From Corallococcus macrosporus (GTDB lineage: Bacteria; Myxococcota; Myxococcia; Myxococcales; Myxococcaceae), in contig NZ_JAFIMU010000004.1 in assembly GCF_017302985.1 (NCBI RefSeq), positions 496,001 to 560,000 of the forward strand: 64,000 nt of DNA. Direction: 5' to 3'. Positions 1 to 34,295 of the stretch are shown here, piece by piece (position 1 is the stretch's first letter; every line of letters begins with the position of its first letter). Below the pieces are notes generated by a model. That model was not told where the DNA came from, did not search any database, and worked only from the letters and a program-made list of their open reading frames with translations. Made by a program: the position numbers and the translations under genes.

Positions 1-2890
1 TGGAAGAGAGGGCTGCGGCTCAAGTCTCGCGAGGGCTGGAGGACTTCCACCAGCTTCTCGAAGGGGACGTGCTGGTGCTCGTAGGCCGCGAGGGTGGTGG
101 CCTTCACCTGGGAGAGCAGTTGACGGAACGAGTCCTCCGGGCGCACGTGGGCGCGCAACACCAACGTGTTGACGAAGAAGCCGATGAGGCTTTCGGCCTC
201 GGCGTGGGTGCGGCCGGCGATGGGAGAGCCGACGCTGATGTCGTCCTGGCCGGAGTAGCGAGAGAGCAGCAACTGGAAGGCGGAGAGCAGCAGCATGAAG
301 GGCGTCGCGCCCTCCCGCTGGGCGAGGCTTCGCAGCGAGTCCGTCAGCTCCGAGGGGAAGTGTACGGGCAGCGTGGCGCCACGACGCGACTGGACGGGCG
401 GACGAGGACGGTCCGTGGGCAACTCCAGCGCCGAGGGGGCCCCGGCCAGCTGCCGCTTCCAGTAACCGAGCTGCGACTCCAGCGTCTCGCCCTGCAGCCA
501 CTCGCGCTGCCAGAGGGCGAAGTCCGCGTACTGCACGGGCAGCGGCGGCAGTGACGGGGCCCGGCCGCTACTGAAGGCTTCGTAGAGGCTCGCCAGCTCG
601 CGGATGAGGACGCCCATGGACCAGCCGTCGGAGACGATGTGGTGCATCGTCACGAGGAGGACGTGGGAGTCCGCTGAAAGCTTGAGGAGCGCGGTTCGCA
701 GCAGCGGACCGTGAACGAGGTGGAAGGGCTGCCGGGCTTCCCGGGTGGCAAGCCGCACCGTCTCCGCTTCGCGCGCGAAATCGTCCAAGCCAGACAGGTC
801 CTCGACCGGAAGCGCCCACGCAGCCGGCGCATGGATGCGCTGGAAGGGCTGGCCTTCGTGCTCGAAGAAGGTGGTGCGCAGGGCTTCGTGGCGTGCCACC
901 AGTGCCTCGAAGGCACGGCGCAGGGCTTCGACGTCCAGATGCCCCTGGAGGCGGAGCGTGACGGGGAGGTTGTAGGACGCATCGTCCGGCGCCAACTGGT
1001 CGAGGAACCAGAGGCGCTGCTGGGCGAAGGAGAGCGGCTGGGGGCCCTCCGTGCGCGAGCGCGTCAGCGGCGGAAGCCGTGTGCCGGTAGAAGCCCGCTG
1101 CAACTTCTCCGCGAGGGAGGCGATGGTGGGGGCCTCGAAGAGGGCGCGGAGCGGCAACTCCACGTCGAGGGCGGAACGCACACGGGCCACCAGTTGGGTG
1201 GCGAGAAGCGAGTGGCCGCCCAATTCGAAGAAGTTGTCTGTGCGGCCCACGGTGGGCACGCGCAGCACTTCGCTCCAGAGCGCCGCGAGCTTCTCCTCCA
1301 GCGGCGTCACCGGCGCTTCGTAGGCGTGCGACGCACGAAGCAAGCTTGCGTCCGGGGCAGGCAGCGCCTTGCGGTCCACCTTGCCGTTGGACGTGAGCGG
1401 CAGCGTCTCCAAGGAGACGAAGGCGGCGGGCACCATGTACTCGGGCAGGTGCTGCTTGAGGTGGGCACGAAGGGCGGAGACATCGAGCGCTTCGCCCACG
1501 ACGTAGGCCACCAGCCGCCTGTCGCCTGGAGCGTCCTCACGGGCCAGCACCACGGCGTCCTTCACGGACGGGGCGGCACGCAGGGCGCTTTCGACTTCAC
1601 CCAACTCGATGCGGAAACCACGCACCTTCACCTGCGCGTCGATGCGCCCGACGAAGTCCAGTTGTCCATCCGCGCGCCAGCGCACCACGTCGCCCGTGCG
1701 ATAGAGGCGAGCGCCCTCTTCACCCGAGAAGTCGTCCGGCACGAAGCGCTCGGCGGTGAGGCCCGGACGCCCTGCGTATCCACGTGCGACACCCACGCCA
1801 CCGATGTGCAGTTCACCGCGCACGCCCACGGGCACTGGTTGCCCGTGCGGGTCGAGCACGTAGACACAGACGTTCGCCAACGGCTTGCCAATGGACGGGA
1901 CGTTCCCATCCGCGACCACCTCACCCAGCGTGGCGATGACGGTGGCCTCCGTCGGGCCGTAGGTGTTGAGCAACCTGCGCCCCGGAGCCCAGCGCGCGAC
2001 GACATCCGCGGGCAGGGCTTCACCGCCGGAGATGACGGTGCGCAGCTCGGGCAGCCTCTCGGAGGACGTGGCCGCGAGTGCCGCGGGCGTGAGGCTGACG
2101 ACGCTCAACTCCTGCTCGCGCAGCAGCACGGGCAAGGGTGCGCCCGGCATCAACTTCTCCAGCGGCGCGAGCACCAGCGTGGCGCCGTTGCATAGCGTGG
2201 TGAAGATCTCCTCCACCGACAGGTCGAAGCTGAGGCTCGCGAACTGGAGCACGCGGCTGCCGGGCCCGATGCCGTACGCCACTGCCTCGTGGGTGACGAG
2301 GTTGGCGACGCTGCGGTGCTCCACCGCCGTGCCCTTGGGTGTGCCCGTGCTGCCCGACGTGTAGAGCAGGTACGCCATGTTCGCGGGCGTCACGCCCGTG
2401 CTGGGCGCCTCCGTGGGCTCCTTGGCGAGAGCACCGCGCTCCGTGTCCAGGCAGAGCGCCCGGCCATGCAGTGCCACCGGGAAACGGTCCACCAGCGGCT
2501 GCTGCGTGACGAGCACCTGGGCGGCGCTGTCCTCCAGCATGAAGGCCAGCCGCTCACGGGGCAGCAGCGGATCCACGGGCACCCAGGCGCCACCGGCCTT
2601 CAGGATGCCGAGCAGGCCGATGACGATGTCGAGGGAACGCTCGACGCTGAGGGCTACGCGAACTTCCGGGCCAACGCCGCGACGGCGCAGCGCGTGGGCG
2701 AGCTGGTTGGCGCGTGCGTCCAGTTGCGCGTACGTCAGCCGCGTCCCCTCGAACACCGCGGCCACAGCCTCGGGCGTGGCCTGCGCCTGTGCCTCGAAGA
2801 GCGAGTGCATGCACGCTTCCGGGAACGGTGCCCGCGTGGCGTTCCACTCCACCAACACCTGCTCTCGCTCCTTCCCCGTGAGCAGCTGCA
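1..2890 (-). repeat. Segment nearly identical to giant NRPS modules 2-3 (about 26704-29590)
   Basis: Long collinear near-identity, read by eye, between the A-T-C part of the left NRPS and the A2-T2-C3 part of the giant gene. Only scattered substitutions are visible over most lines, for example in the first 550 bases compared with 26704-27250. The match ends in the C-A linker around 2890-2950. On the other side of that point the sequence matches giant C1 (about 32750-34168), more loosely than the A-T-C segment does. Confidence 0.85.
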
Positions 2891-4316
2891 GCGAAGATGC
2901 GTGATGATCAGGCTGCGCGACGGCTTGCTGCAGGAGCACGCGGAGGTGCTGGGCCATGCGGGCGGCGGTGGCAGGGGTGAAGAGGTCGGTGGTGTATTCG
3001 AGGTAGCCCTTGAGGCCCGCGTCCGTCTCCAGCACCTGGAGCGTCAGGTCGAACTTGGCGGAGAAGGTGTCCAGCTCCAGCGCTTCCAGCTTCACGCCTT
3101 CCACGGAGGCCGCGCCGCGGAAGGAGGCCTGGTAGGTGAGCATCACCTGGAAGAAGGGGGTGCGCCCCGGGATGCGCTCGGGCTTCAACTCCTCCACGAG
3201 ACGCTCGATGGGCAATTCCTGGTGCTCTTGCGCGCCCAGCACCGTCTCGCGCACCTGACGCAGCAGCGTGCGGAAGGAGTCGCGGCCCGTCACGCGGGTG
3301 CGAAGCACCTGGGCGTTGACGAAGAGGCCGATGAGGCCCTCCACCTCTCCGCGCGTGCGGCCGGCCATGGGCGAGCCGACGGTGACGTCCTCCTGGCCGG
3401 AGTAGCGGGCCATGAGCAACTGCCAGCCCGTCAGCAGCGCCATGTAGAGGGACGCGCCCTCCTGCTGCGCCAGCGCCTTCAGCGCGTCCGTCAACTCGCG
3501 GGGCAGCAGCACGTCATGCCGGGCGCCTCGGCCGTCGCGGAGGGCGGGACGCGGGAAGTCGGTGGGCAACTCCAGCGCGGAGGGCACTCCGGCCAGCTGC
3601 TGCTTCCAGTAGTCGAGCTGCTTCTCCAGGCGCGAGCCCTGCAGCCACTCGCGCTGCCAGACGCCGAAGTCCGCGTACTGCACGCTCAGCGGCGGCAGCG
3701 GTGCGGGCTGGCCTCGCGCGAAGGCGCCGTAGAGCAGCGCCACCTCGCGCACCAGCAGCGTCATGGACCAGCCGTCGGAGACGATGTGGTGCACCACCAC
3801 CACGAGCAGGTGCTCCTGGGGGGCGGATGTCAGCAGCAGTGCGCGCAGCAGTGGGCCTTGCGCGAGATTGAAGGGCCAGGCCGCGGCTTCACGCGCCAGT
3901 CGCCAGGCCTCGTCCGGCGAGGAGCCCGTGAGGTCCTTGCGCTCCAGGGTGAGCACCGGCTCGGGTGACACCACCTGCACGGGGCCCGAGGCGTCCTCGC
4001 GGAAGGTGGTGCGGAGCACCTCGTGACGGCGCACCACCTCTCGCAGCGCTCGCTCCAGCACGGCCACGTCCAGCGCGCCCTCCAGCCGCACCGCCATGGG
4101 CACGTTGTAGAGAGGGCTGCCGGGTTGCAGCTGATCAATGAACCAGAGGCGCTGCTGGGCGAACGACAGCGGCAGCGGGCGCGAGCGGTCCTGCACCGGG
4201 ATGAGGCCTTGAGTGGAGGTCCCCGCGGCGGCCTTCTGCGCCGCCACCTTCTTGAGCAACTCGGCGCGCTTCTCCGGTGAGAGGTTGGCGATCCGCTTCG
4301 ACAGCTCGTTGCTCAT
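1..4316 (-). CDS. Non-ribosomal peptide synthetase, 5' part (C-A-T-C..., runs off left edge)
   Basis: Multimodular NRPS whose 3' end lies outside the window; about 1438 codons are visible. The start ATG at 4316 is preceded by GGAG eight bases upstream, and an in-frame TGA lies 23 codons further up, so the start is firm. Domains in order: a basic/amphipathic leader (MSNELSKRIANL...), a condensation domain with the HHIVSDGWS active site near 3780, an adenylation domain (core A3 YTSGSTGTPKG near 2350, A10 NGKVDRKALP near 1380), a carrier domain with LGGHSLLATQ near 1215, and most of a second condensation domain (HHIVSDGWS near 630). The ten adenylation pocket residues read D-L-E-S-I-G-T-V-I-K, a code I cannot assign with confidence; Glu at position 239 is often seen with basic residues. 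The first C domain matches C1 of the giant neighbour, whereas everything from the A domain on matches its modules 2 and 3. Confidence 0.95.
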   Translation of the reverse strand, partial: MSNELSKRIANLSPEKRAELLKKVAAQKAAAGTSTQGLIPVQDRSRPLPLSFAQQRLWFIDQLQPGSPLYNVPMAVRLEGALDVAVLERALREVVRRHEVLRTTFREDASGPVQVVSPEPVLTLERKDLTGSSPDEAWRLAREAAAWPFNLAQGPLLRALLLTSAPQEHLLVVVVHHIVSDGWSMTLLVREVALLYGAFARGQPAPLPPLSVQYADFGVWQREWLQGSRLEKQLDYWKQQLAGVPSALELPTDFPRPALRDGRGARHDVLLPRELTDALKALAQQEGASLYMALLTGWQLLMARYSGQEDVTVGSPMAGRTRGEVEGLIGLFVNAQVLRTRVTGRDSFRTLLRQVRETVLGAQEHQELPIERLVEELKPERIPGRTPFFQVMLTYQASFRGAASVEGVKLEALELDTFSAKFDLTLQVLETDAGLKGYLEYTTDLFTPATAARMAQHLRVLLQQAVAQPDHHASSLQLLTGKEREQVLVEWNATRAPFPEACMHSLFEAQAQATPEAVAAVFEGTRLTYAQLDARANQLAHALRRRGVGPEVRVALSVERSLDIVIGLLGILKAGGAWVPVDPLLPRERLAFMLEDSAAQVLVTQQPLVDRFPVALHGRALCLDTERGALAKEPTEAPSTGVTPANMAYLLYTSGSTGTPKGTAVEHRSVANLVTHEAVAYGIGPGSRVLQFASLSFDLSVEEIFTTLCNGATLVLAPLEKLMPGAPLPVLLREQELSVVSLTPAALAATSSERLPELRTVISGGEALPADVVARWAPGRRLLNTYGPTEATVIATLGEVVADGNVPSIGKPLANVCVYVLDPHGQPVPVGVRGELHIGGVGVARGYAGRPGLTAERFVPDDFSGEEGARLYRTGDVVRWRADGQLDFVGRIDAQVKVRGFRIELGEVESALRAAPSVKDAVVLAREDAPGDRRLVAYVVGEALDVSALRAHLKQHLPEYMVPAAFVSLETLPLTSNGKVDRKALPAPDASLLRASHAYEAPVTPLEEKLAALWSEVLRVPTVGRTDNFFELGGHSLLATQLVARVRSALDVELPLRALFEAPTIASLAEKLQRASTGTRLPPLTRSRTEGPQPLSFAQQRLWFLDQLAPDDASYNLPVTLRLQGHLDVEALRRAFEALVARHEALRTTFFEHEGQPFQRIHAPAAWALPVEDLSGLDDFAREAETVRLATREARQPFHLVHGPLLRTALLKLSADSHVLLVTMHHIVSDGWSMGVLIRELASLYEAFSSGRAPSLPPLPVQYADFALWQREWLQGETLESQLGYWKRQLAGAPSALELPTDRPRPPVQSRRGATLPVHFPSELTDSLRSLAQREGATPFMLLLSAFQLLLSRYSGQDDISVGSPIAGRTHAEAESLIGFFVNTLVLRAHVRPEDSFRQLLSQVKATTLAAYEHQHVPFEKLVEVLQPSRDLSRSPLF

Positions 4317-4442
4317 CTTGTGTACTCCGCGCTCGGGGACGCCATCGCGAGCGCCACCCGGGGCGGTGACGTTCGCGAGAACTCAGACCTGCTGCTGATT
4401 CCGGATTGCCCCCTGCGCCGCTCTCCCGGGAGAAGCGCGAGG

Positions 4443-4539
4443 GTGGGTCAAATCCACGCGGATAAGATTATTCCGCCTACGAAGGTCCTGTCATGACCCC
4501 GGCGGAAAGGCGCCCGAATGAATTCAGGTATTTGCGGGA
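4443..4539 (-). promoter_or_regulatory. Promoter region of the left NRPS gene, paralogous to that at 34296-34392
   Basis: A sigma70-like pair reads ATGACA (4494-4489), an 18-base spacer, and TAATCT (4470-4465). Immediately downstream, near the expected +1, is a small dyad GTGG-N7-CCAC (4443-4457). About 27 bases above the -35 there is an imperfect dyad AATTC-AG-GTATT (4521-4532) inside the motif TCCCGCAAATAC (4539-4528, minus strand). All of these elements recur at the same spacing before the giant NRPS gene. Such conservation outside coding sequence supports function, but the binding proteins are unknown. Confidence 0.55.
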
Positions 4540-4731
4540 TTGCTCTGGCTCCCCGGGTTCAGGGAGGGAAGGACGTCCCATGTCCTCCGCAGTGAGACCT
4601 GCTCCTGGAGTCTCCTCCCTGAGGGCGGATGTATCACGCCCCAGACTTCGCCATTGAAACAGCCGCGAGCCACCGTTGAAACCCGATGGCTCATGCCTGG
4701 AAACATGTTTCAGGGGCGCTGCACGAACGGC

Positions 4732-4761
4732 CCCACCGTCGCGACGAGCCGCGACAGTGGG
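4732..4761 (-). terminator. Hairpin after the giant NRPS stop codon
   Basis: A 12-base stem (CCCACTGTCGCG against CGCGACGGTGGG, one U-G wobble) with a 6-base loop begins 25 bases after the TGA of the giant gene. It is a plausible transcription end or attenuation point separating the two NRPS transcription units. No U-run follows, so an intrinsic terminator of the classic type is not proven. Confidence 0.5.
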
Positions 4762-4786
4762 ATCTCACTTCACTTGAAGCTCGACG

Positions 4787-5660
4787 TCAGTGCCCTGTGG
4801 CCTGGCGGGGGGCGCTGCCCGAAACCTGCGTGAGCGCATCCCGCAGACGCTCGATGACAGGCCCGAGGTGCGGGTCCTGCATCAGGGCGTGGTGGCCCCC
4901 CGGGACGGTATGCACGTCCAGGCCGCCGCGGACGAGGGGCTCCCAGCCGCGATGTGCCGGGAGCGTGGCGGGGGCTTCGCCGGCGCTCAAGAGCAGGGCG
5001 GTGCCGTCGTACGGCCGGGGCACGTACTTCTCCTGGGCGAAGAGGTTGGCGCGGAAGACGTTGAAGAGGGCACTTAGCTGCGCAGGCCCGGAGTGCGCAT
5101 CGAGGATGCGCGCCCGGAGCCCTTCCTCCAGCAGGTGGCCCAACATCGTGTCGTCGTCGCCCGCCGCGAGGGCCTCGTCGGAGACGGAAAGCGCCTGACT
5201 GAAAGCCGTCGCGGTGGCGTGAGCGAAGGCGAGCCTTGCGCGGGCCTGGGCGTCGAGGTGCGAGATGCCCTGCGAGGGCTTCGTCAGGCCGGGGACGTGG
5301 GTGTCGATGAGGGCGAGCACATCCACGGCTTCGCCAGCTTCGCGCAACTGCTGGGCCATCTCGTAGGCGACGAGTCCACCCAGGGACCAGCCTCCGAGTT
5401 GGTAGGGCCCGTGAGGCTGCACGGTGCGGATGGCCTCGATGTAGAGGGTGGCCATCTCCTCGATGGACTCCGCGACGGGACGGCCGTCGAGGCCGCGCGA
5501 CTGGAGGCCGTAGACGGGCAACGAGGGCCCCAGGCGGCGCGCCAGCTCCGAGTAGGCGAGGACGTTGCCGCCGCCAGGGTGGACGAGGAAGAAGGGCCGG
5601 TGGCCGGGCTCGCCGCGCTCCATCGGGACGAGGGGCGTCCAGGCCTGCGAGTCCTCGCGG
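4787..5660 (-). other. Domain: terminal type I thioesterase of the giant NRPS
   Basis: Residues about 9500-9793. It opens with FFLVHPGGGNVLAY, contains the nucleophile elbow GGWSLGG near 5390, an acidic residue in LALIDTHVP and a catalytic-type histidine in GGHHALM near the end. It releases the finished chain from carrier 9 by hydrolysis or macrocyclisation; the sequence does not decide which. Confidence 0.9.
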
Positions 5661-8600
5661 AGCACCTGGGCGAGCTGCTCGACGGTGGGCTGCTGGAAGA
5701 GGACGGAGAGGGGGAGCGTCTGGCCCAGATGCTCGCGGACAGCGGCGACCATGCGCACGGCGAGCAGCGAGTGGCCGCCAAGTTCGAAGAAGCTGGTGCG
5801 GACGCCGACGGAGCGGACGCCGAGGACGTCCTGCCAGATGCGCGCGAGCTGCATCTCGAGGGTGTCACGGGGGGCGACGAAGTCCCGGGCCTCGACGGCG
5901 TGGGCGTCGGGTTCGGGCAGGGCCTTGCGGTCCACCTTGCCGTTGGCGTTGAGCGGCAGGACGTCGAGAACGAGGAGGGCGGAAGGCACCATGTACTCGG
6001 GCAGCCGCTGCTTGAGGTGGGCCTTGAGCGCGTCGGAGTCCACTGCGTGGCCTTCGCGAGCGGTGACGTAACCGATGAGGCGCTTGTCCGTGTCCGAGCC
6101 CTGGGCCACGACGACGGCCTCGTTGACGCCCGTGAATGCACGCAGTGCCGCTTCGATTTCACCCAGCTCGATGCGGAAGCCGCGCACCTTCACCTGGAAG
6201 TCGACGCGACCGAGGAAGTCGAGCGTGCCGTCCTCCCTCCAGCGGGCCTTGTCGCCCGTGCGGTAGAGGCGTTCGCCAGGACTGGTGGCAAAGGGGTGCG
6301 GAACGAAGCGCTCCGCGGTCAGGTCCGGGCGGTGGAGGTAGCCCCAGGCGAGACCCTGGCCACCGACGTACACCTCTCCCGCGACGCCTACCGGCACAGG
6401 GTGCAGGTGCGCGTCGAGCACGTAGACGGTGGAGTTGGAGAGCGGCCGACCAATGGGCACTGCGCCGTCCACCACCGAGTCGCGGTGCATGCTGAACGTC
6501 GCGGAGAAGGTGGTGTTCTCCGTGGGGCCGTAGCCGTTGATGAAGGTGGTGCCTTCGGGGATGCGCGAGAGGTGCTCCCGCACGCGAGCAGCGGGTAGCA
6601 CGTCGCCACCAGCAAGCGCCTGACGCACGCCTGCAAGGGCTTCGCCCTGGTGCAGTGCCATCTGCTCGAAGAGGGCCGCGGTGAGCCAGAGTGACGTCAC
6701 GCGGTGGTGACGCAGCTGCGCGGCCAGTTCCTCCAGCGAGAGGGCGTGAGGCGGAGCAAGGACGAGCTTCGCGCCATGCAGCAGTGCGCCCCAGATTTCG
6801 AGCGTGGAGGCGTCGAATGCAACCGGAGCCGCCTGGAGCCAGACCTCGTCGGGCCCGAAGCGCATGAACGAGTTGCCCAGCACCAGGCGGGTGATGCCCC
6901 GGTGGGGCACGGAGACGCCCTTGGGACGACCTGTGCTGCCCGAGGTGAACATGACGTAGGCCAGCGCCTCGCCGTCCACGCGGACATCCGGTGCATGCGT
7001 GGGCAGCGCGGCAATGACGTCCCGCTGCGCATCCAACAAGACGCGGGTGCCGGAGGCAGGCAGCAGTGACGCGAAGGGCTGGTGCGTCAGTGTCACGCTG
7101 ACGTCCGCATCTTCCAAGAGCGCAGCGATGCGCTCCACGGGGGCGTTGCGGTCCACGGGTACGAAGGCCGCGCCCACCTTGAGGATGGCGAGCAGCGCGG
7201 TCACCATTTCGAAGGAGCGCTCGACGGCGAGGCCGACGCGTGCGCCCGGGACGACGCCCAGCGAGCCCATGTGATGGGCCAGCTGGTTCGCGCGTGCGTC
7301 CAACTGCTCATACGTCAGCGTGTCATCTCCCAGCACCAGCGCGACGGCGTCAGGCGTGCGCAGGACCTGCCGGGCGAAGTGGACGTGGACGGGGAGGTCC
7401 GTCGGGCTGACGGCCACGGTGTCATTCCACTCCACGAGGATGCGCTGACGCTCTTCGTGGGAGAGGAGGGACAGTTCCGCCACGGACTGCTCAGGCTTCG
7501 CGGCGATGGCCTCCAGCAGCGTGCGCAAGTGGCTCGCCATCCGCTCGATGGTGCCCTGCTTGAAGAGGGCAGTGCTGTACTCCAGCGTGCCGCGCAGGCC
7601 TTCAGTGCCTTCGGTGAAGAAGACACTCACGTCGAACTTCGACGTGGAGTGGGTGGCCTCCAGGCCTCGCAGCCGGAGGTCCGGCAGGCGCACGTCCTCG
7701 GTGGGCACGTTCTGGAGCGCCAGCAGCGTCTGGAAGAGCGGCGTGTGGCTGAGGCTGCGGGTCGGCTGCAAAGCCTCCACCAGCTTCTCGAAGGGCACTT
7801 CCTGGTGCTCGTAAGCCTCCAGCACCGTGGCACGCACCTGCTTCAGCAGCGTCCTGAAGGACTGGCCCTCGTCCACCTTCGCGCGAAGGACGAGCGTGTT
7901 GACGAAGAAGCCGATGAGGCCTTCTGTCTCCGCACGGGTCCGGCCGGCGATGGGCGAACCCACGCTGACGTCGTCCTGGCCCGTGTAGCGCGCCATGAGT
8001 CCCTGCCAGGCGGCCAGTAGCACCATGAAGAGCGAGCCGCCTTCCCGGTGAGCCAGGCCGCGCAGGGCCTCCGTCAACTCACGCGACAGGGTGAAGCTGA
8101 AGGTGGCACCCGCGGTGCTCCGGATGGCCGGGCGGGGGAAGTCAGTCGGCAGCTCCAGCACAGCAGGCGCGCCGGAGAGCTTCGTTTCCCACCAGGCGAC
8201 TTCCTGCCGCAGCGTCTCACCCGAGAGGGTACGGCGCTGCCAGTCGGCGTAGTCCGCGTACTGTACGGGAAGGGCAGGAAGAGGCGACGGCTGTTCCGCG
8301 GAGAAGGCTGAGTAGAGGGCGGTGATTTCCCGCACCAGGACGCCCAGCGACCAGCCGTCTGAGACGATGTGGTGCATCGTGACGACAAGGACGTGCTCGG
8401 TTTCGCCCAGCTTGAAGAGCAGCGAGCGGAGGAGGGGACCCGTGCGCAGGTCGAAGGGCCGGCGCATCTCCACTTCCACTCGGGCCCGCGTCTCGGACTC
8501 GCGCTGCGCTTCAGGCACGTCCGAGAGGTCCACGATGGCCAGGGGCTGGTGGCCGTCAGGATGGATGATCTGGACCGGTGTCCCCTCCACCTGGGCGAAG

Positions 8601-11600
8601 GTGGTGCGCAGGGCGTCGTGGCGGCGCACGACTTCCTGCAGGGCACGCTCCAGCATGTCGGCGCGCAGGTGGCCCTCCAGCCGGACGGCGACGGGCACGT
8701 TGTAGAGCGAGCTGCCCGGCTCCAGTTGGTCGATGAGCCACAGCCGCTGCTGGGCGAAGGACAACGGCAGCGGGCCATCATGCGAGACGCGGGTGAGTTG
8801 CGGCGCGCTGGTGCGAGTGAGGCCCTTCAGGCGAATGGCGAGGGCCTCCACGGTGGGCGACTCGAAGAGGGCGCGCAGCGGGAGTTCCACGCTGAACTCG
8901 GCGCGCACGCGCGACACCACCTGGGTGGCGAGCAGCGAGTGGCCACCCAGCTCGAAGAAGGAGTCCTTCACGCCCACCTGGGGCAGACGAAGGACCTCCG
9001 CCCAGATGGATGCAAGCTTCGCCTCCGTCTCGGTGCGAGGCGCTTCGTAGGTGCTGCGCGACTGCGGGGCCTCCGGCTCGGGCAGGGCCTTGCGGTCGAC
9101 CTTGCCGTTGGCATTGAGGGGCAGGGCGTCCAGCACCACGAAGGTGGAGGGCACCATGTACTCAGGGAGCCCCTGGCGCAGATGGGCCTTGAGGGCTTCC
9201 ACCTCCAGCGAGGACTCCGCCTTGGGCGCGACGTAGGCAACGAGCCGCTTGCCGGCGGCTTCGCCCTTGGCGACGACGACGGCGTCCTTGAGACCGGGCA
9301 CACGGCGGAGTGCCGCTTCGATTTCGCCCAGCTCGATGCGGAAGCCGCGCACCTTCACCTGGAAGTCGATGCGGCCCAGGTACTCCAGCCGCCCGTCCGC
9401 GCGGTAACGGACGCGGTCGCCCGTGCGGTACATGCGGCCGCCAGGAGGACCGTAGGGCTCCGGGACGAAGCGCTCCGCGGTGAGCTCCGGGCGCAGCAGG
9501 TAGCCCCGCGCCTGGCCTTCACCCGCGAGGTACAGCTCACCGGCGACACCCACGGGCACCGGCTGCAACGAAGCGTCCAGCACGTAGGCGCGCGTCGCGG
9601 GCAGGGGCCTGCCGATGAGAGGCACCTCGTCACGACCGACGAGAGAGGCGGTGGAGTAGGTGGTGTCCTCGGAGGGGCCGTAGAGGTTGAAGAGCTTCTG
9701 CACCGTGGGGACGGCGTAGACCTGCTTGGCCAACGTCTCCGGCAGGGCCTCGCCCGCGAGGTTGATGACACGCACGGTGGGCGGTACCGCATTCAGGCGC
9801 AGCAACTGTGCCATGGCGGAGGGCACCGTGTTGACGAGGGTGACGTGCGAGGCAGTGGGCAGCTCCGCGAGGTGCAGTGCGTTGCGTGCCACGACCACCG
9901 CGCCGCCACTGGAGAGAGGCGCGAAGAGCTCGAAGACGGAGAGGTCGAAATTGAGGCTCGTCGCGGCAAGCGTGCCCTTCAACTCCTCCGGGGTGAACGT
10001 CGCGAGGGCCCAGTGGAGGAAGGAGACAGCGTTGCCATGGGAGATGGCGACGCCCTTGGGACGGCCGGTGCTGCCGGAGGTGTAGATGAGGTAGGCGAGG
10101 TGCCCGGGGTGGATGTCCACCTCGGGCGCCGTGGTGGGCTGCTTCGCCAAGTCCGCATCCGAGTCGAGGCACACGGCCGTGGCCGCTGTTTCAGGCAGCG
10201 CGGCGAGAAGGTGCGAGTGGGCGACGAGGGCAGGGCCCTGCGCGTCTTCCAGCAGCCAGCCCAGGCGCTCACGCGGGTAGCTGGGGTCCAGCGGCACGTA
10301 GGCGCCACCGGCCTTGAGGATGCCGAGGGCTCCGATGACGAGGTCCTCGGTGCGCTCCACGCAGAGGCCGACGCGGACTTCAGGCCCGACGCCCAGGCCA
10401 CGCAGACGGTGGGCGAGTTGGTTGGCCTTCGCGTCCACCTCGCGGTACGTCAGCTGGCGCTCGGACGTGATGACGGCCAGCGCGTCCGGCGTGCGGCGCA
10501 CCTGGGCCTCCACCATCGCGGGGATGCTCGGCTCGTACTGCGTCTGCGAGGCCGGCGGATTCCACTCGATGAGGAGCTGCTGCCGCTCGGACTGCGTGAG
10601 CAGGGGCAGGTCGCTCAGCCTGGTGTCTGGCTTCGCGACGATGGCCTCCAGCAACACGCCGAAGTGCCCGGCCATGCGCTGGATGGTCGCCGCGTCGAAC
10701 AGGTCCGTCGCGTACTCCAGCGTACCGGTGAATCCGTCCCGTCCCTCGCGCAGACCCAGGGAGAGGTCGAACTTGGCGAAGTGGGCCTCCAGCGGCAGGC
10801 CCTGGAACGACAGGCCCGGCAGACGCACTGCCTCGGTGGGCGTGTTCTGCAGGACGAACATCGCCTGGAAGAGGGGACTGCGGCTCAGGTCACGCGCGGG
10901 CTGCACCGCTTCGACAAGCTTTTCGAAGGGCAGGTGCTGGTGGTCGTAGGCCGCGAGCGTCGTGCCGCGCACCTGGGCCAACAGCTCACGGAACGTCGCG
11001 CGCGGGTTCAGCTGGGCGCGCAGGACCAGGGTATTGATGAAGAAGCCGATGAGGCCTTCGGTCTCCGCCTGGGTGCGGCCCGCGATGGGTGAACCGACGC
11101 TGATGTCATCCTGGGCGGAGTAGCGCGACAGGAGCACCTGGAAGGCCGCCAGCAGCGTCATGAAGGGCGTGGCGCCTTCACGCTGAGCCAGGGTCTTGAG
11201 GGCCTCCGCAACGTTGGCGGGGATCCGCACATCCACGGTGGCGCCACGGTGGGACTGCACGGGCGGACGCGGACGGTCCGTGGGCAGCTCCAGCGCCGCA
11301 GGCGCACCGGCCAACTGTCGCTTCCAGTAGGCAATCTGCGCGTCCAGGGTCTCACCCTGGAGCCAGTTGCGCTGCCACGTCGCGAAGTCCGCGTACTGCA
11401 CGGGCAGCGGCGCGAGGGCCGGCGTGCTTCCCCTGGTGAAGGCCTCGTAGAAGGCCACCATCTCGCGCACGAGGACGCCCATGGACCAGCCGTCGGAGAC
11501 GATGTGGTGCATCGTCACCAGCAGCAGGTGCGAGTCGTCCGTCAGACGCACCAGCGTGGTGCGCAGCAGCGGACCCCTGGCGAGGTCGAACGGCCGCCGC

Positions 11601-14600
11601 GCTTCCTCGTCGGCCATCCGCTGCGACGCTTGCTTCCGCTGGGACTCCGGCAGGGAAGAGAGATCCACCAGCGGCAGTGTCCAATCCACCGAAGCGTGGA
11701 TGCGCTGGATGGGTTGGTCCTGATGCTCGTGGAAGGTGGTGCGCAGGGCTTCGTGACGTTCAACGAGCGATTCGAAGGCGCGGCGCAGCGCTTCGACATC
11801 CAGGTGCCCGGAGAGCTGGATCGCCGTGGGGATGTTGTAGGACGCATCGCCGGGCTGAAGCTGATCCAACAGCCACAGCCGCTGCTGCGCGAAGGACAGG
11901 GGGCTCGGTCCGTCCGCGTGGGAGCGGGTGAGCGGAGGCCGGTGGACGTTCGGGGTGATCGCCTGGAGGCGCTCGGCGAGGGCGGCCACGGTGGGCGCTT
12001 CGAAGAGGGCCCGGAGCGGCAGCTCCACACGGAAGGCGGAGCGCACACGCGAGACGAGCTGGGTGGCCAGCAGCGAGTGGCCTCCGAGCGCGAAGAAGTC
12101 GTCGTGGATGCCCACGCGCTCCACGCGCAGCACCTGCGTGAAGAGTGCCGCGAGCCGCTCCTCCGCGGGGGTGCGCGGCGCGACGTAGGTGGAGGCGAGC
12201 GCGTTGCTCTGAGGCGCGGGCAGGGCCTTGCGGTCCACCTTGCCGTTGGTGTTGAGCGGCAGGGCTTCCAGCACGAGGAACGCGGAGGGCCGCATGTGCT
12301 CGGGCAGGAACTGCTTGAGCCAGTCCTTGAGGGCGTCGGGCGTGGGCGGGGAGTCCACTCCTTCCGGAGGCACCACGTAGGCCACGAGCCGCTTGTCACC
12401 GGGCACGTCCTCACGCGCCAGCACTACGGCGGCGTGCACCTGGGGATGCTTGAGGAGGGCGGCTTCGATTTCGCCCAGCTCGATGCGGAAGCCGCGGACC
12501 TTCACCTGGAAGTCGGCACGGCCCAGGTAGTCGAGCATCCCGTCCGCGCGCCAGCGCACCACGTCGCCGGTACGGTAGAGGCGGGCACCGGGCGTGGACG
12601 AGAAGGCGTCGGGGATGAAGCGGTCCGCCGTCAGCTCGGGGCGGTTGAGGTAGCCGCGAGCGACGCCCTCGCCGCCGATGAAGAGTTCACCCGCGACGCC
12701 CACGGGCACCGGGCGCAGCGTGCGGTCCAGGACGTAGACGCGCACGTTGGGCAGCGGCCGGCCGATGGTGGGCGTAGGCGAAGCGTCGAAGGCACAGGCG
12801 GTGGCGTCGACGGTGCACTCGGTGGGGCCGTAGACGTTGAAGACGCGCGGGCGCGGGACTTCTGCCAGGTGACTCCACGTGGCGGGGTCCACGGCTTCGC
12901 CGCCCACGAGGACGCGGCGGGGGATGGACTGGCTCTGCAGCAGGCCTTCATCCACCAGCAGGCGCAGGTGCGCGGGCGAGCAGTCCAGGACGTCCAGGGC
13001 GTCCTTGCCGATGCGGTGGACGAGTTCACGCACGTCGGCGCGGGCCTCGTCCGGGACGATGCAAAGGGTGTGGCCGTCGAGTACCTGGATGAGCTGCTTG
13101 ACGGAGGCATCGAAGGAGAGCGGCGCGTTGACGCTGACGCGCTCTCCGGGCTGAGCGCCCGCGTGCACGGTGGCGGCGAGAGCGACGCGCAGGTTCAGCA
13201 CGGAGCGGTGCTGAATCATCACGCCCTTGGGACGGCCGGTGCTGCCAGAGGTGTAGATGATGTACGCCAGGTGCTCCGGCGTAACCGACGTCACGGGAGC
13301 CTTCGCGGACTCAAGGGCGAGGTCCGCGGCGTCGGAGTCCAGGCAGATGTCTTGCGCGGTATGCGGGGGCAGCGAATCACGCAGGCGCTGCTGGGTGAGG
13401 ACCACCGGAGCTCCCGTGTCCAGGAGGACATGGGAGAGCCACTCGCGCGGATAGCTGGGGTCGATGGGGACGTAGGCGCCGCCAGCCTTGAGAATGCCGA
13501 GGATGCCGACGAGGGCTTCGACGGAGCGCTCCACGCAGAGCACCACGCGGACATCAGGGCCGACGCCCAGCTTCACCAGCCGGTGGGCGAGCTGATTGGC
13601 GCGCGTGTCCAGCTCACGGAAGGTGAGCTGCTCATCGCGGCAGATGACGGCCAGGGCCGCGGGCGTGCGAAGGGCCTGGGCGGCGAAGGCCTCATGGAGG
13701 CAGAGGTCACGGGGGAACTCAGCACTCGGGCCGTTCCAGTCGACAAGCAACTGCTGACGCTCCTGCGCGGTGAGCAGCGGCAGGCTCGCGAGCGTCGCGT
13801 CCGGCTTCGCGGCGATGGCCTCCAGCAACACGCCCAGGTGGCCCACCATGCGATGCACGGTGGACGCATCGAAGAGGTCCGTGGCGTACGTCAGTGCTCC
13901 GACGAAGCCCTGGGGCGACTCGACGAGGGTGAGCGTGAGATCGAACTTGGAGGAGCGGGTGTCCACCGGGACGGTCTGGAAGGACAGCCCGGCCAGACGA
14001 AGCGTTTCGGTGGGTGCGTTCTGCAGGGAGAACATCGCCTGGAAGAGCGCGCTGCGGCTCAGGTCGCGTACGGGCTGGAGGACCTCCACCAGCTTCTCGA
14101 ACGGGACGTGCTGGTGCTCGTAGGCCGCGAGCGTCGTGCCTCGCACCTGGGAGAGGAACTCGCGGAAGGTCGAATGCAACTGAACGTGGGCACGCAGCAC
14201 CAGCGTGTTGACGAAGAAGCCGATGAGGCCCTCGGTCTCCGCCTGCGTGCGGCCCGCGATGGGCGTGCCCACGCTGATGTCGTCCTGCGTGGAGTAGCGC
14301 GACAGCAACACCTGCCAGGCCGCGAGCAGCACCATGAAGGGCGTCGCGCCCTCGCGCTGGGCCAGCGCCTTGAGGGCGTGGGTAACATGCGATGGGACTC
14401 GCACGTCCACCGTGGCCCCCCGGCGTGACTGCACGGGCGGACGCGGGCGGTCCGTGGGCAGATCCAACGCGGACGGCGCCCCCGACAGCTGCTGCTTCCA
14501 GTATCCAAGCTGCGCGTCCAGGGCTTCACCCTGGAGCCAGCCTCGCTGCCACATGGCGAAGTCCGCGTACTGCACGGGCAGCGGCGGAAGGGCCGGAATG

Positions 14601-17600
14601 CTTCGCGAGCTGAAGGCTTCGTAGAAGGCCGCGACCTCGCGAACGAGGACGCCCATGGACCAGCCGTCGGAGACGATGTGGTGCATCGTCACCAGCAGCA
14701 GGTGCGAGTCCTGTCCCAGCCGTACCAGCGTGCTGCGCAGCAGCGGGCCCGTGGTGAGGTGGAAGGGACGACGGGCCTCCGTGGCCGCCGCGCGCTGGGC
14801 CTCTTCCTCGCGCTGTGACTCAGGGAGGGCGCTCAGGTCGATGAGGGGCAGCTCCCAGCCGGAGGACCCCTGGATGCACTGCGACGGTTCGTCGTGCTCG
14901 GCGGAGAGCGTGGTGCGCAGCGATTCGTGGCGCTCCACCAGCGCCTCGAAGGCGCAGCGCAGCGCTTCCAGGTCCACCGGGCCCGTCAGCCGCAGGGCAG
15001 TGGGGATGTTGTACGAGATGTCACCGGGCTGGAGCTGGTCCAACAGCCAGAGCCGCTGCTGGGCGAAGGACAGCGGAATGACGCCTTCGCGCGGCGAGGG
15101 CCGCAGCGGCGGAGCACGGAGCGCGGCGGACGGAGCTCCCGCGAGCTTTGGCGCGAGGCCTTCGACCGTCGGGGCTTCGAAGAGGGCCCGCAGCGGCAGT
15201 TCCACCGCGAACGTAGCCCGCACGCGCGAGACGAGCTGTGTGGCCAGCAGGGAGTGTCCGCCCAGGGCGAAGAAGTCGTCCTGCAAACCGACTCGCTCCA
15301 CGCGGAGGACTTCGGCGAAGAGGGCCGCGAGCTTTTCCTCGGTGGGCGTGCGAGGCGCAACGAAGGCGCGAGGCGCGTCCACGGGTTCCGGCAGTGCCTT
15401 GCGATCCACCTTGCCATTGGTGTTGAGCGGCAGTGTGTCGAGGACGACCAGCGCGGACGGCACCATGTACTCGGGCAGCCGCTGCTTGAGGTTTGCCTTG
15501 AGGGTGTCTGGATCCAGCGACTGGCCGTCGCGCGCGGTGACGTAGCCAATGAGGCGCTTGTCCGCGTTCGTGCCCCGAGCCACGACAATGGCCTCGTTGA
15601 CGCCAGGGGTGGAGCGCAGGGCCGCTTCGACTTCACCGAGTTCGATGCGGAAGCCACGCACCTTCACCTGGAAGTCGACGCGGCCGAGGAAGTCGATCGT
15701 GCCGTCCTCCCGCCAGCGGGCCTTGTCACCCGTGCGGTAGAGGCGCGCACCCGGCGTAGAGGCGAAGGCGTGGGGAACGAAGCGCTCCGCGGTCAGGTCC
15801 GGGCGATTGAGGTAGCCCCAGGCGAGGCCTTGGCCACCAACGTACGCCTCTCCCGCGACGCCTACGGGCACAGGATGCAGACGCGCATCCAGCACGTAGA
15901 CGGTGGAGTTGGAGAGCGGGCGGCCAATGGGCACCGCACCGTCCACCACCGAGTCACGGTGCATGGCGAAGGTGGCGGAGAAGGTGGTGTTCTCCGTGGG
16001 GCCGTAGCCGTTGATGAAGGTGGTGCCTTCGGGGATGCGGGCGAGGTGCTCGCGCACGCGGGCGGCGGGCAGTACGTCGCCACCGGCGAGGACCTGACGC
16101 ACGCCTGCGAGGGCCTCGCCCTGGTGCAGGGCCATCTGCTCGAAGAGAGCCGCGGTGAGCCACAGGGCCGTCACGCGGTGGTGGCGCAGCTGCGAGGCCA
16201 ACTCCTCTAGCGAGAGCGACTGGGGAGGCGCGAGGACGAGCTTCGCGCCGTGCAGCAGCGCGCCCCAGATTTCGAGCGTGGAGGCGTCGAAGGCAACCGG
16301 GGCGGCCTGGAGCCAGACCTCGTCGGGCCCGAAGCGCATGAAGGCGTTGCCGAGCACCAGGCGGGTGATGCCCCGGTGAGGCACGGAGACGCCCTTGGGG
16401 CGGCCCGTGGAGCCCGAGGTGAACATGACGTAGGCCAGCGCCTCGCCGTCCACGCGGACTTCCGGCGCATGCGTGGGCAGCGCGGCGATGACGTCGCGCT
16501 GCGCATCCAGCCAGACGCGAGTGCCAGAGGTGGGCAGCAGCGAGGCGAAGGGTTGGTGGGTGACGATGAAGTGGACGTCGGCGTCCTCCAGCAGGGTGGC
16601 GATGCGCTCCAAGGGTGCGTTGCGGTCCACGGGCACGAAGGCGGCGCCCACCTTGAGGATGGCGAGCAACGCCGTCACCAACTCGAAGGAACGCTCAACG
16701 GCGAGGCCGACGCGCGCGCCGGAAACGATGCCCAACGAGCTCAAGTGGTGGGCCAACTGGTTCGCGCGGGCATCCAGCTGGGCGTACGTCAGCGTGTCAT
16801 CCCCCAGCACCAGTGCGACAGCGTGAGGCGTGCGCAGGGCCTGCTGAGCGAAGTGGACGTGGGCAGGGACGTCAGTCGGACTGACGGCGGCCGTGTCATT
16901 CCACTCCACCAGGATGCGCTGGCGTTCCGCTCCCGTCAGCAGTTGCACCTCGGTGAGGCACTGCTCGGGCTTCGCGGCGACGGCCTCCAGCAGCGTGCGC
17001 AGGTGGCTCGCCATCCGTTCGATGGTGCTCCGCTTGAAGAGGGCAGTGCTGTACTCGAGCGTGCCACGCAGTCCCTCAGTGCCTTCGGTGAAGAAGACGC
17101 TCACGTCGAACTTCGACGTCGAGTGGGTGGCCTCCAGGCCTCGCAGCCGCAGTTCCGGCAGGCGCACGTCCTCGGTGGGCACGTTCTGGAGCGCCAGCAG
17201 CGTCTGGAAGACAGGCGTGTAGCTGAGGCTGCGCGCGGGCTGCAGGGCCTCCACCAGCTTCTCGAAGGGCACTTCCTGGTGCTCGTAGGCTTCCAGCACC
17301 GTGGTGCGCACCTGCTGGAGGAGCGTCCGGAAGGACTGGCCTTCCTCCACCTTCGCGCGAAGGACGAGCGTGTTGACGAAGAAGCCGATGAGGCCCTCCA
17401 TCTCCGCACGAGTACGGCCAGCGATGGGCGAGCCCACGCTGACGTCGTCCTGGCCCGTGTAGCGCGCAAGCAGCCCCTGCCAGGCGGCCAGCAGCACCAT
17501 GAAGAGCGAGCCACCTTCCCGGTGAGCCAGGCCGCGCAGGGCCTCCGTCAACGCGCGAGACAGCGCGAAGTTGAGAGTCGCGCCCGCGGTGCTCCGGACG

Positions 17601-20600
17601 GCCGGACGAGGGAAGTCAGTGGGCAACTCCAGCACTGCCGGAGCGCCGGAGAGCTTCGTCTCCCACCAGGCCATCTCCTTCCGCAGCGTCTCACCCGAAA
17701 GCGTGCGGCGCTGCCAATCGGCGTAGTCCGCGTACTGCACCGCCAGCTCGGGCAAGGGTGACGGCTGCCCCGCGGAGAATGCCGAGTAAAGGGCCGTGAT
17801 TTCCCGCACCAGCACGCCCAGCGACCAGCCGTCGGAGACGATGTGGTGCATCGTGACGACGAGGACGTGGTCGGTTTCGCCCAGCTTGAAGAGCAGCGAG
17901 CGGAGGAGGGGGCCCGTGCGCAGGTCGAAGGGCCGGCGCATCTCCGCTTCCATGCGGGCCCGCGTCTCGGACTCGCGCTGTGCTTCGGGCACGTCCGAGA
18001 GGTCCACGAGGTTCAGGGCCTGGTGGCTGTCAGGATGGATGATCTGGACAGGCGTCCCCTCCACCTGAGCGAAGGTGGTGCGCAGGGCATCGTGGCGGCG
18101 CACGACTTCCTGCAGGGCGCGCTCAAGTACATCGGCGCGCAAGTGGCCCTCCAATCGGACTGCGACGGGCACGTTGTAGAGGGAACTGCTCGGCTCAAGC
18201 TGATCGATGAGCCACAGCCGCTGCTGCGCGAAGGACAGCGGACGCGTGCCTTCATGCGAAACGTGGGTGAGGTGTGGGCTGCTGGTGCGGGTGAGGCTCG
18301 CGAGGCGCGCTGCAAGGGCCTCCACGGTGGGCGACTCGAAGAGGGCGCGCAGCGGGAGTTCCACGCTGAACTCAGCGCGCACTCGAGACACGACCTGGGT
18401 GGCGAGCAGGGAGTGACCACCCAGCTCGAAGAAGGAGTCCTTCACGCCCACCTGGGGCAGACGGAGGACCTCCGCCCAGATGGACACGAGCTTCGCCTCC
18501 GTCTCGGTGCGAGGCGCTTCGTAGGTGCTGCGCGACCGCGGGGCCTCCGGCTCCGGCAGGGCCTTGCGGTCCACCTTGCCGTTGGCGTTGAGCGGCAGGG
18601 CCTCCAGCACGAGGACCGCAGAGGGCACCATGTACTCGGGCAGCCGCTGCTTGAGGCTTGCCTTGAGGGCTTCGGAGTCCAGCGCGTGCCCTTCGCGAGT
18701 GGTGACGTAGCCAATGAGGCGCTTGTCCGCGTCCGTGCCCCGGGCCACGACGACCGCTTCGCTGACGCCGGTGACGGAGCGCAGGACCGATTCGATTTCA
18801 CCCAGCTCGATGCGGAAGCCACGCACCTTCACCTGGAAGTCGACGCGGCCGAGGAAGTCGATCGTGCCGTCCTCCCGCCAGCGGGCCTTGTCACCCGTGC
18901 GGTAGAGGCGCGCACCCGACGTAGAGGCGAAGGGGTGGGGAACGAAGCGCTCCGCAGTCAGGTCCGGGCGATTGAGGTAGCCCCAGGCGAGGCCTTGGCC
19001 ACCAACGTACGCCTCTCCCGCGACGCCTACGGGCACAGGATGCAGACGCGCATCCAGCACGTAGACGGTGGAGTTGGAGAGCGGGCGGCCAATGGGCACC
19101 GCACCGTCCACCACCGAGTCACGGTGCATGGCGAAGGTGGCGGAGAAGGTGGTGTTCTCCGTGGGGCCGTAGCCGTTGATGAAGGTGGTGCCTTCGGGGA
19201 TGCGGGCGAGGTGCTCGCGCACGCGGGCGGCGGGCAGTACGTCGCCACCGGCGAGGACCTGACGCACGCCTGCGAGGGCCTCGCCCTGGTGCAGGGCCAT
19301 CTGCTCGAAGAGAGCCGCGGTGAGCCACAGGGCCGTCACGCGGTGGTGGCGCAGCTGCGAGGCCAACTCCTCTAGCGAGAGCGACTGGGGAGGCGCGAGG
19401 ACGAGCTTCGCGCCGTGCAGCAGCGCGCCCCAGATTTCGAGCGTGGAGGCGTCGAAGGCAACCGGGGCGGCCTGGAGCCAGACCTCGTCGGGCCCGAAGC
19501 GCATGAAGGCGTTGCCGAGCACCAGGCGGGTGATGCCCCGGTGAGGCACGGAGACGCCCTTGGGGCGGCCCGTGGAGCCCGAGGTGAACATGACGTAGGC
19601 CAGCGCCTCGCCGTCCACTCGGACTTCCGGCGCATGCGTGGGCAGCGCGGCGATGACGTCGCGCTGCGCATCCAGCCAGACGCGGGTACCGGAGGCAGGC
19701 AGCAGCGAGGCGAAGGGTTGGTGGGTGACGATGAAGTGGACGTCGGCGTCCTCCAGCAGGGTGGCGATGCGCTCCAAGGGTGCGTTGCGGTCCACGGGCA
19801 CGAAGGCGGCGCCCACCTTGAGGATGGCGAGCAACGCCGTCACCAACTCGAAGGAACGCTCAACGGCGAGGCCGACGCGCGCGCCGGAAACGATGCCCAA
19901 CGAGCTCAAGTGGTGGGCCAGTTGGTTCGCGCGTGCGTCCAGCTGCGCGTACGTCAGCGTGTCATCCCCCAGCACCAGTGCGACAGCGTGAGGCGTACGC
20001 TGCGCCTGCTGAGCGAAGTGGACGTGGACGGGGATGTCCGTCGGGCTGACGGCGGCCGTGTCATTCCACTCCACGAGGATGCGCTGACGCTCTTCGCTGG
20101 AGAGGAGGGACAGCTCCGCCACGGGCCGCTCGGGCTTCGTGGCGACGGCCTCCAGCAGCGTGCGCAGGTGGGCCGCCATCCGCTCCACGGTGCTCCGCTC
20201 GAAGAGGGCGGTGCTGTACTCCAGCCAGCCGGTGAACCCCTGCGGTGAATCCTGGAGCGTCAACGTGAGGTCGAACTTGGCGGAGTGACCTTCGGCGGCG
20301 ACCTGCCGGAAGGTGAGGCCCGGGACGCGCAGCGCTTCGGCCGGAGCGTTCTGGAGGACGAACATCACCTGGAACAGCGGACTGCGGCTGGTGTCCCGGA
20401 CGGGCTGGAGGGCTTCCACCAGCTTTTCGAAAGGCACGTGCTGATGGTCGTACGCCGCGAGCGTCGCGCCGCGCACCTGGGCGAGCAGCTTGCGGAAGGA
20501 CTCCTCTGGAGTCACGCGCGAGCGGAGGACGAGCGTGTTGACGAAGAAGCCGATGAGGCCTTCGGCTTCCGCCTGCGTCCGGCCCGCGATGGGCGAGCCC

Positions 20601-34168: not shown

Positions 34169-34295
34169 CTCGATGGACTCCACGCTGGGGGACGCCAGCG
34201 CGAGCGTCACCCGGGGCGGTGACATTCGCGGGAACTCAGGCCTGCTGTTGATTCGGGATTGACGCCCTGCGCTGCTTTCCCAGGGAATGCGCGGG

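What the first reader, a model, noticed from the sequence alone, without database searches (positions are those of the whole stretch)
1..4316. Second NRPS made by natural exchange at the C-A linker: C1 joined directly to the module 2 adenylation domain
Seen: the left NRPS starts like giant module 1 (leader, C1) but from about base 2890 leftward matches giant A2-T2-C3. The A1-T1-C2 block (Gly loading) is missing. The junction falls in the C-A linker, the same point used as fusion site in exchange-unit engineering. Inference: evolution has either deleted or inserted one A-T-C unit, producing sister peptides that differ by one N-terminal residue.
Basis: partly seen in the sequence, partly recalled or inferred. 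Interest (0 to 1): 0.72.

Follow-up and report, generated by a model that had tools for sequence, protein, structure and literature searches.

The report
Peptide synthetase lacking one A-T-C unit
Next to a nine-module peptide-making enzyme in a Corallococcus bacterium sits a related six-module enzyme whose starter domain is joined directly to what is the second unit of its neighbour, a natural one-unit deletion at the same kind of linker that engineers cut, found in several related species.

Summary
Confirmed, enlarged and partly corrected. The window (genus Corallococcus) holds part of an array of three tandem, intact NRPS genes: N1 (9 modules, 4787-34225), N2 (6 modules plus TE; only its first 1438 aa lie in the window, 3-4316) and N3 (9 modules, outside). 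N2 starts with N1's leader and C1 (83% aa) joined to A2-T2-C3 (95/90/95%). The breakpoint maps to window 2913-2924, at the end of C1 where the C-A linker begins. N3 lacks the same A-T-C unit but breaks about 22 aa further on, at WNATR. Three complete related genomes carry the same array, always with Gly first in N1 and no Gly in N2/N3. A rooted C1 tree and an outgroup genus with C1-Gly favour loss of A1-T1-C2 in the N2/N3 lineage over insertion into N1. Later gene conversion homogenised segments within each genome. The claim that the peptides differ by one residue fails: 9 against 6 modules, with only two specificities shared in line. The two natural junctions coincide with two engineered cut sites (Calcott 2020; exchange-unit WNATE). 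Natural A-T-C deletion and concerted evolution are already described, so this is a well-resolved new example, not a new kind.

The parts
3..4316 (-). N2 (left NRPS), first 1438 aa: leader-C1-A1-T1-C2 (part); the gene continues outside the window to contig position 480433 (6 modules + TE)
2919..4316 (-). N2 leader + C1, homologous to N1 leader + C1 (C1 82.8% aa) and nearly identical to N3 C1 (97.7%)
2913..2924 (-). N2 breakpoint (95% interval): upstream sequence N1 module-1-like (352/423 informative sites), downstream N1 module-2-like (513/540)
2820..2918 (-). C-A linker of N2 module 1 (AQPDHHASSLQLLTGKEREQVLVEWNATRAPFP), of the type found at N1's C2-A2 junction; approximate bounds
1362..2819 (-). 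N2 A1, code DLESIGTVI (substrate unassigned), 95.3% to N1 A2, 97.3% to N3 A1; approximate bounds
1092..1319 (-). N2 T1, 90% to N1 T2; approximate bounds
3..1034 (-). N2 C2 (part within window), 95.1% to N1 C3 over the whole domain; approximate bounds
4787..34225 (-). N1 (giant): 9 x C-A-T + TE, 9812 aa
29621..32773 (-). N1 A1(Gly)-T1-C2 unit (about 1051 aa, between the two homologous breakpoints) that is absent from N2 and N3
   Evidence: A1 code DIL..GVVW read as Gly
4317..4786 (-). N1-N2 intergenic region (about 470 nt); genes are tandem on the same strand

Best explanation
N2 is a paralogue of the neighbouring giant NRPS N1 in a three-gene tandem array (N1-N2-N3) that several Corallococcus species share. 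An ancestor of N2 and N3 had N1's start, C1-A(Gly)-T-C2-A(X). Recombination between the C1-A1 and C2-A2 linker regions, within one copy or between tandem copies, removed one A-T-C unit and joined C1 directly to A(X). Afterwards gene conversion among the three tandem genes homogenised segments within each genome, with tract ends at the linker. Hence two junctions coexist: the beta type at the end of C1 (N2) and the alpha type at WNATR (N3). By colinearity N2 should present X, not Gly, to C1 and make a six-residue peptide without the N-terminal Gly. Shown: architecture, breakpoints, conservation of the array, concerted clustering. Supported with moderate statistics: direction of change (loss). 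Inferred: mechanism of the first event, products, C1 acting on the first residue.
For: Architecture and identities; nucleotide breakpoints. Same array in three single-contig genomes (modules 8/7/9, 8/7/9, 7/6/9 against 9/6/9 here) with flanks 88-93% identical over most of their length. All 13 N1 orthologues begin C1-Gly; all nine N2/N3 orthologues begin C1-X. Outgroup genus (G014, G015) has C1-Gly with a homologous C1-A linker, and its A1 is 70% identical to N1 A1 against at most 49% to any other A domain compared. In the C1 tree the non-Gly C1s nest inside the Gly type (fork 86/97; wider fork 96/92*); AU test rejects grouping all Gly-type C1s, p 0.021. Per-genome clustering: C1 of N2+N3 in 4/4 genomes, A(X) of N1+N2+N3 in 4/4, TE of N1+N3 in 4/4, while N2 TEs form one orthologous clade (100/98*). 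83/94 A domains and 50/94 C domains have their nearest relative in the same genome. A 245-nt run identical between N2 and N3 ends at the breakpoint. C1 and A1 between species: dN/dS 0.07-0.14.
Against: The fork that makes the non-Gly C1s one clade is not starred (86/97), and p 0.021 is modest; gene conversion of C1 in the basal species could mimic the nesting. Because conversion is rampant, the present breakpoints may be ends of later conversion tracts and not the original deletion points. Whether alpha and beta junctions are two fusions, or one fusion plus a conversion from N1, is unresolved. No product or expression is known.
Confidence: 0.74

Rival explanations
1. Insertion: N2/N3 keep the ancestral start (C1-A(X)) and N1 gained an A(Gly)-T-C unit.
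For: N1 A1, T1 and C2 are outliers in the array (at most 61% to any other domain), as a foreign insert would be; without an outgroup the three genes alone do not decide.
Against: Outgroup genus already has C1-Gly with a homologous linker and A(Gly) 70% identical; non-Gly C1s nest within Gly-type C1s, AU p 0.021 for the alternative; N1's C2 is present in all N1 orthologues read that far, at 79-94% identity, so there is no sign of a recent insert.
Confidence: 0.15
2. The N2 junction is a later gene-conversion product (compatible with the loss in the main explanation): the first fusion was of alpha type (at WNATR, as in N3 and in the basal species G022, G026, G023), and N2 acquired N1's C2-A2 linker and A(X) by conversion from the adjacent N1 gene, with the tract ending at the end of C1.
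For: Alpha junctions in the basal species and in N3 of two genomes; A(X) of N1, N2 and N3 cluster by genome; N2 also shares the Leu module with N1 in this genome (95-98%).
Against: N2's beta linkers in several species share residues that N1 of the same genome lacks (PD[AH][HQ]), suggesting an older, inherited N2 junction; the linker is too short for a tree.
Confidence: 0.45
3. Assembly artefact: collapsed or chimeric repeats between near-identical NRPS modules.
For: Long near-identical stretches in a draft assembly (17 contigs).
Against: The same array, with the same Gly/no-Gly pattern, is present in three single-contig genomes with syntenic flanks; reading frames are intact; C1 and A1 evolve under purifying constraint.
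Confidence: 0.02

Closest known systems
Natural A-T-C module deletion in nostopeptolide/minutumamide synthetases (PMC12184294)
   Same: Putative natural module deletions that follow A-T-C rather than C-A-T boundaries
   Different: There between pathways of cyanobacteria, tied to PKS/NRPS borders; here between tandem paralogues within one genome, at the first module, with nucleotide-level breakpoints
Exchange units, XU (Bozhuyuk 2018, as described in PMC7242659 and PMC11546977)
   Same: A-T-C as the unit; cut in the C-A linker at WNATE. N3's junction (2-5 aa before W of WNATR) falls next to it
   Different: Engineered, not natural; N2's junction is about 24 aa further upstream
Linker + A domain substitution boundary (Calcott 2020, PMC7486941)
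   Different: Engineered single A-domain swap in PvdD; here a whole A-T-C unit is lost
Nodularin synthetase, by deletion of two modules of the microcystin synthetase (cited in PMC8097286)
   Same: Module deletion makes a shorter sister peptide
   Different: Different organisms hold the long and short forms; here both persist side by side in one genome
Wollamide/desotamide bifurcation (PMC9205934)
   Same: Duplicated NRPS genes in one cluster diverge by intragenomic recombination, giving parallel products
   Different: There an A-domain change in a duplicated bimodular gene; here whole multimodular genes with loss of a unit
Concerted evolution of NRPS A and C domains (Medema 2014, PMC4256081)
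   Same: Domains cluster by gene cluster rather than by position
   Different: Here between three separate tandem synthetases, with different segments shared by different pairs

Membership tests
Natural A-T-C unit deletion between NRPS paralogues | Flanking domains collinear and closely related, exactly one A-T-C unit absent | tested here: met
   C1 82.8%, then A2/T2/C3/A3 at 95/90/95/98%; A1-T1-C2 absent
Natural A-T-C unit deletion between NRPS paralogues | Long form ancestral (deletion, not insertion) | tested here: inconclusive
   Favoured by outgroup and rooted C1 tree, AU p 0.021, but key fork 86/97 only
XU-type junction (W|NATE in the C-A linker) | Breakpoint at or next to the WNAT motif | tested here: not met
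   For N2: -24 aa from W, interval -26..-23. Met for N3 of this genome (interval -3..-2)
[quoted passage not shown]
   N2 switches at QQAV|AQPD; linker is of N1 C2-A2 type
Concertedly evolving NRPS array | Paralogous segments cluster by genome although the genes predate the species | tested here: met
   C1, A(X), TE trees; synteny; N2 TEs one orthologous clade
Lipopeptide synthetase with starter C domain | C1 N-acylates the first residue | not tested
   C1 is N-terminal by position; nearest solved relatives Txo1/Txo2 do not settle its subtype

The most novel reading that the evidence does not exclude
The C1/A boundary of this three-gene array is a recurrent natural recombination point: the same C domain has been fused to the same A domain at two different places in the C-A linker (end of C1, and WNATR), and in other species C1 is followed by yet another A domain, so that one genus holds natural replicates of the two main engineering designs, kept side by side in one genome.
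Probability: 0.35. Interest if true: 0.6.

Novelty: new member of a known kind. Interest (0 to 1): 0.43.

Why it matters
Natural NRPS junctions are used as guides for engineering, and a survey found that nature mostly keeps the native C-A linker and swaps only the A core (PMC8097286). Here the same C domain is joined to the same A domain at two natural sites, one keeping C1's linker (alpha) and one taking the A domain's linker (beta), in intact and constrained paralogues of one genome. Comparing N2 and N3 products and C1 kinetics would test directly which linker matters and whether C1 gates its acceptor (Gly against X).

Tried and rejected
NCBIfam gave only general NRPS models. Flanking genes (DsbA-like, MscS, glycosyltransferases, UbiA/FAD/SDR) show no obvious tailoring or export genes dedicated to the array, so they did not help to name a product. 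The A(X) code DLESIGTVI and the DAW?LGHVV code were not found in the main text of a survey of signature sequences; I left X unassigned (Lys-like is only a recollection), and 'Leu' is tentative. Solved structures did not settle the subtype of C1. No paper found that describes this array; the library holds open-licence papers only. Whether local similarity alone fixed the breakpoint was looked at: N1 modules 1 and 2 are 75% identical just before the beta site (85th percentile) with shared exact runs of only 8-9 nt, and unremarkable at the alpha site, so homology may have helped at beta but does not explain alpha.

Full report
What was checked. The left reading frame (window 3-4316, minus strand) and the giant (4787-34225, minus) were translated. 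A search of the window's own genome showed that the window is part of a 1.09-Mb contig and that NRPS domains continue to its left. Fetching the left flank revealed three tandem genes on one strand: N1 = the giant, 9 modules (C-A-T) plus TE; N2 = the left NRPS, 6 modules plus TE, complete; N3 = a further 9-module gene plus TE. Every module of N1-N3 has the C-domain HHxxxDG and the T-domain GGHS motif.

The observation. Domain by domain, N2 C1 is 82.8% identical to N1 C1 and 97.7% to N3 C1, and at most 53.6% to anything else in the array. N2 A1, T1, C2 and A2 are 95.3, 90.0, 95.1 and 98.3% identical to N1 A2, T2, C3 and A3. N1's A1, T1 and C2 have no counterpart above 61%. So exactly one A-T-C unit (window 29621-32773, about 1051 aa) is absent from N2. 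Beyond its second A domain N2 is related to N1 and N3 but is a mosaic and not collinear with either.

The breakpoint. Using only sites where N1 modules 1 and 2 differ, a change-point scan places N2's switch 24 aa before the W of WNATR (95% interval 26 to 23), i.e. window 2913-2924, with 352/423 module-1-like sites upstream and 513/540 module-2-like sites downstream. By eye the DNA agrees. N3 of the same genome switches 2-3 aa before the W. N2 and N3 are identical over 245 nt up to N2's breakpoint, then only 55% identical over about 20 codons, then 91%: N3 keeps the linker type of N1's C1-A1 (alpha), N2 carries that of N1's C2-A2 (beta).

Other genomes. Sixteen of the 96 genomes searched in the family, the window's own among them, have a close C1. 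Three single-contig genomes carry the same three-gene array (modules 8/7/9, 8/7/9, 7/6/9), and both flanks match the window's flanks at 88-93% over most of their length. All 13 N1 orthologues start C1-Gly; all nine N2/N3 orthologues start C1-X. Beta junctions occur in N2 of G000, G018, G027, G028 and G019 and in N3 of G027 and G028; alpha junctions in N3 of G000 and G018 and in single genes of G022, G026 and G023 (the G028 breaks are placed at -16 with interval -23 to -16, and the G023 interval is wide).

Direction of change. Rooted on a more distant paralogue, the C1 tree places the outgroup genus (C1-Gly) outside Corallococcus, and the non-Gly C1s nest inside the Gly type. The fork holding all non-Gly C1s has support 86/97; forcing all Gly-type C1s together is rejected with p 0.021, all N1 C1s together with p 0.027. 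The outgroup's A1 is 70% identical to N1 A1 and at most 49% to the other A domains compared, and its C1-A linker is recognisably the same. Loss in the N2/N3 line is therefore favoured, with moderate support.

Concerted evolution. N2 TEs form one clade across species (100/98*), so N2 is old; N1 and N3 TEs pair by genome in 4/4. C1 of N2 and N3 pair by genome in 4/4. A(X) of all three genes cluster by genome in 4/4. Overall 83 of 94 A domains but only 50 of 94 C domains have their nearest relative in the same genome. Gene conversion between tandem copies is the simplest reading; repeated re-duplication of whole genes in each species does not fit the shared N2 TE clade. This also means that present breakpoints may be conversion-tract ends.

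Constraint. dN/dS between species is 0.12-0.14 for C1 and 0.07-0.12 for A1, so the fused module is maintained.

Products. From active-site residues read with anchors (assignments from general knowledge of the specificity code): N1 Gly-X-(Leu?)-Glu-Val-Val-Glu-Ala-Val; N2 X-(Leu?)-Ala-(Val-like)-Ala-Ala; N3 X-Glu-like-Val-Ala-Val-Glu-Ala-Ala-Val. They do not differ by a single residue.

Comparison with what is known. Natural A-T-C deletions, module deletion in nodularin, bifurcated NRPS genes and concerted evolution of NRPS domains are described. [quoted passage not shown] N2's junction matches the 'linker + A' engineering boundary, N3's the WNATE exchange-unit site. The finding is a new, well-resolved member of a known kind.

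Noticed in passing
contig C4:450693-480194 (left of the window; L001-L003): N3, a third tandem NRPS (9 modules + TE) that also lacks the Gly unit but with a different junction
   Followed up: yes
L129 (G025) and L134 (G021): In two basal Corallococcus genomes the same C1 with its own linker is followed by another, different A domain (WNDTDVALPAELGV...), suggesting repeated exchange at this boundary
   Followed up: partly
window 4787-34225, and N2, N3: A domains are homogenised within each genome far more than C domains (83/94 against 50/94 nearest relatives in the same genome)
   Followed up: yes
G000:C4:157670-183862 (L137-L138): A further 8-module NRPS in the same genome whose C1 is 66% identical to N2's C1 and which carries a DLESIGSVI A domain internally (module 6)
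   Followed up: partly
L112-L115 (G028): Some A domains of G028 (N3 modules 4 and 9, N2 module 4) give codes with E in place of the usual G (DALWLEGTF, DALLLEATF), read by a simple anchor method and possibly a reading error
   Followed up: no
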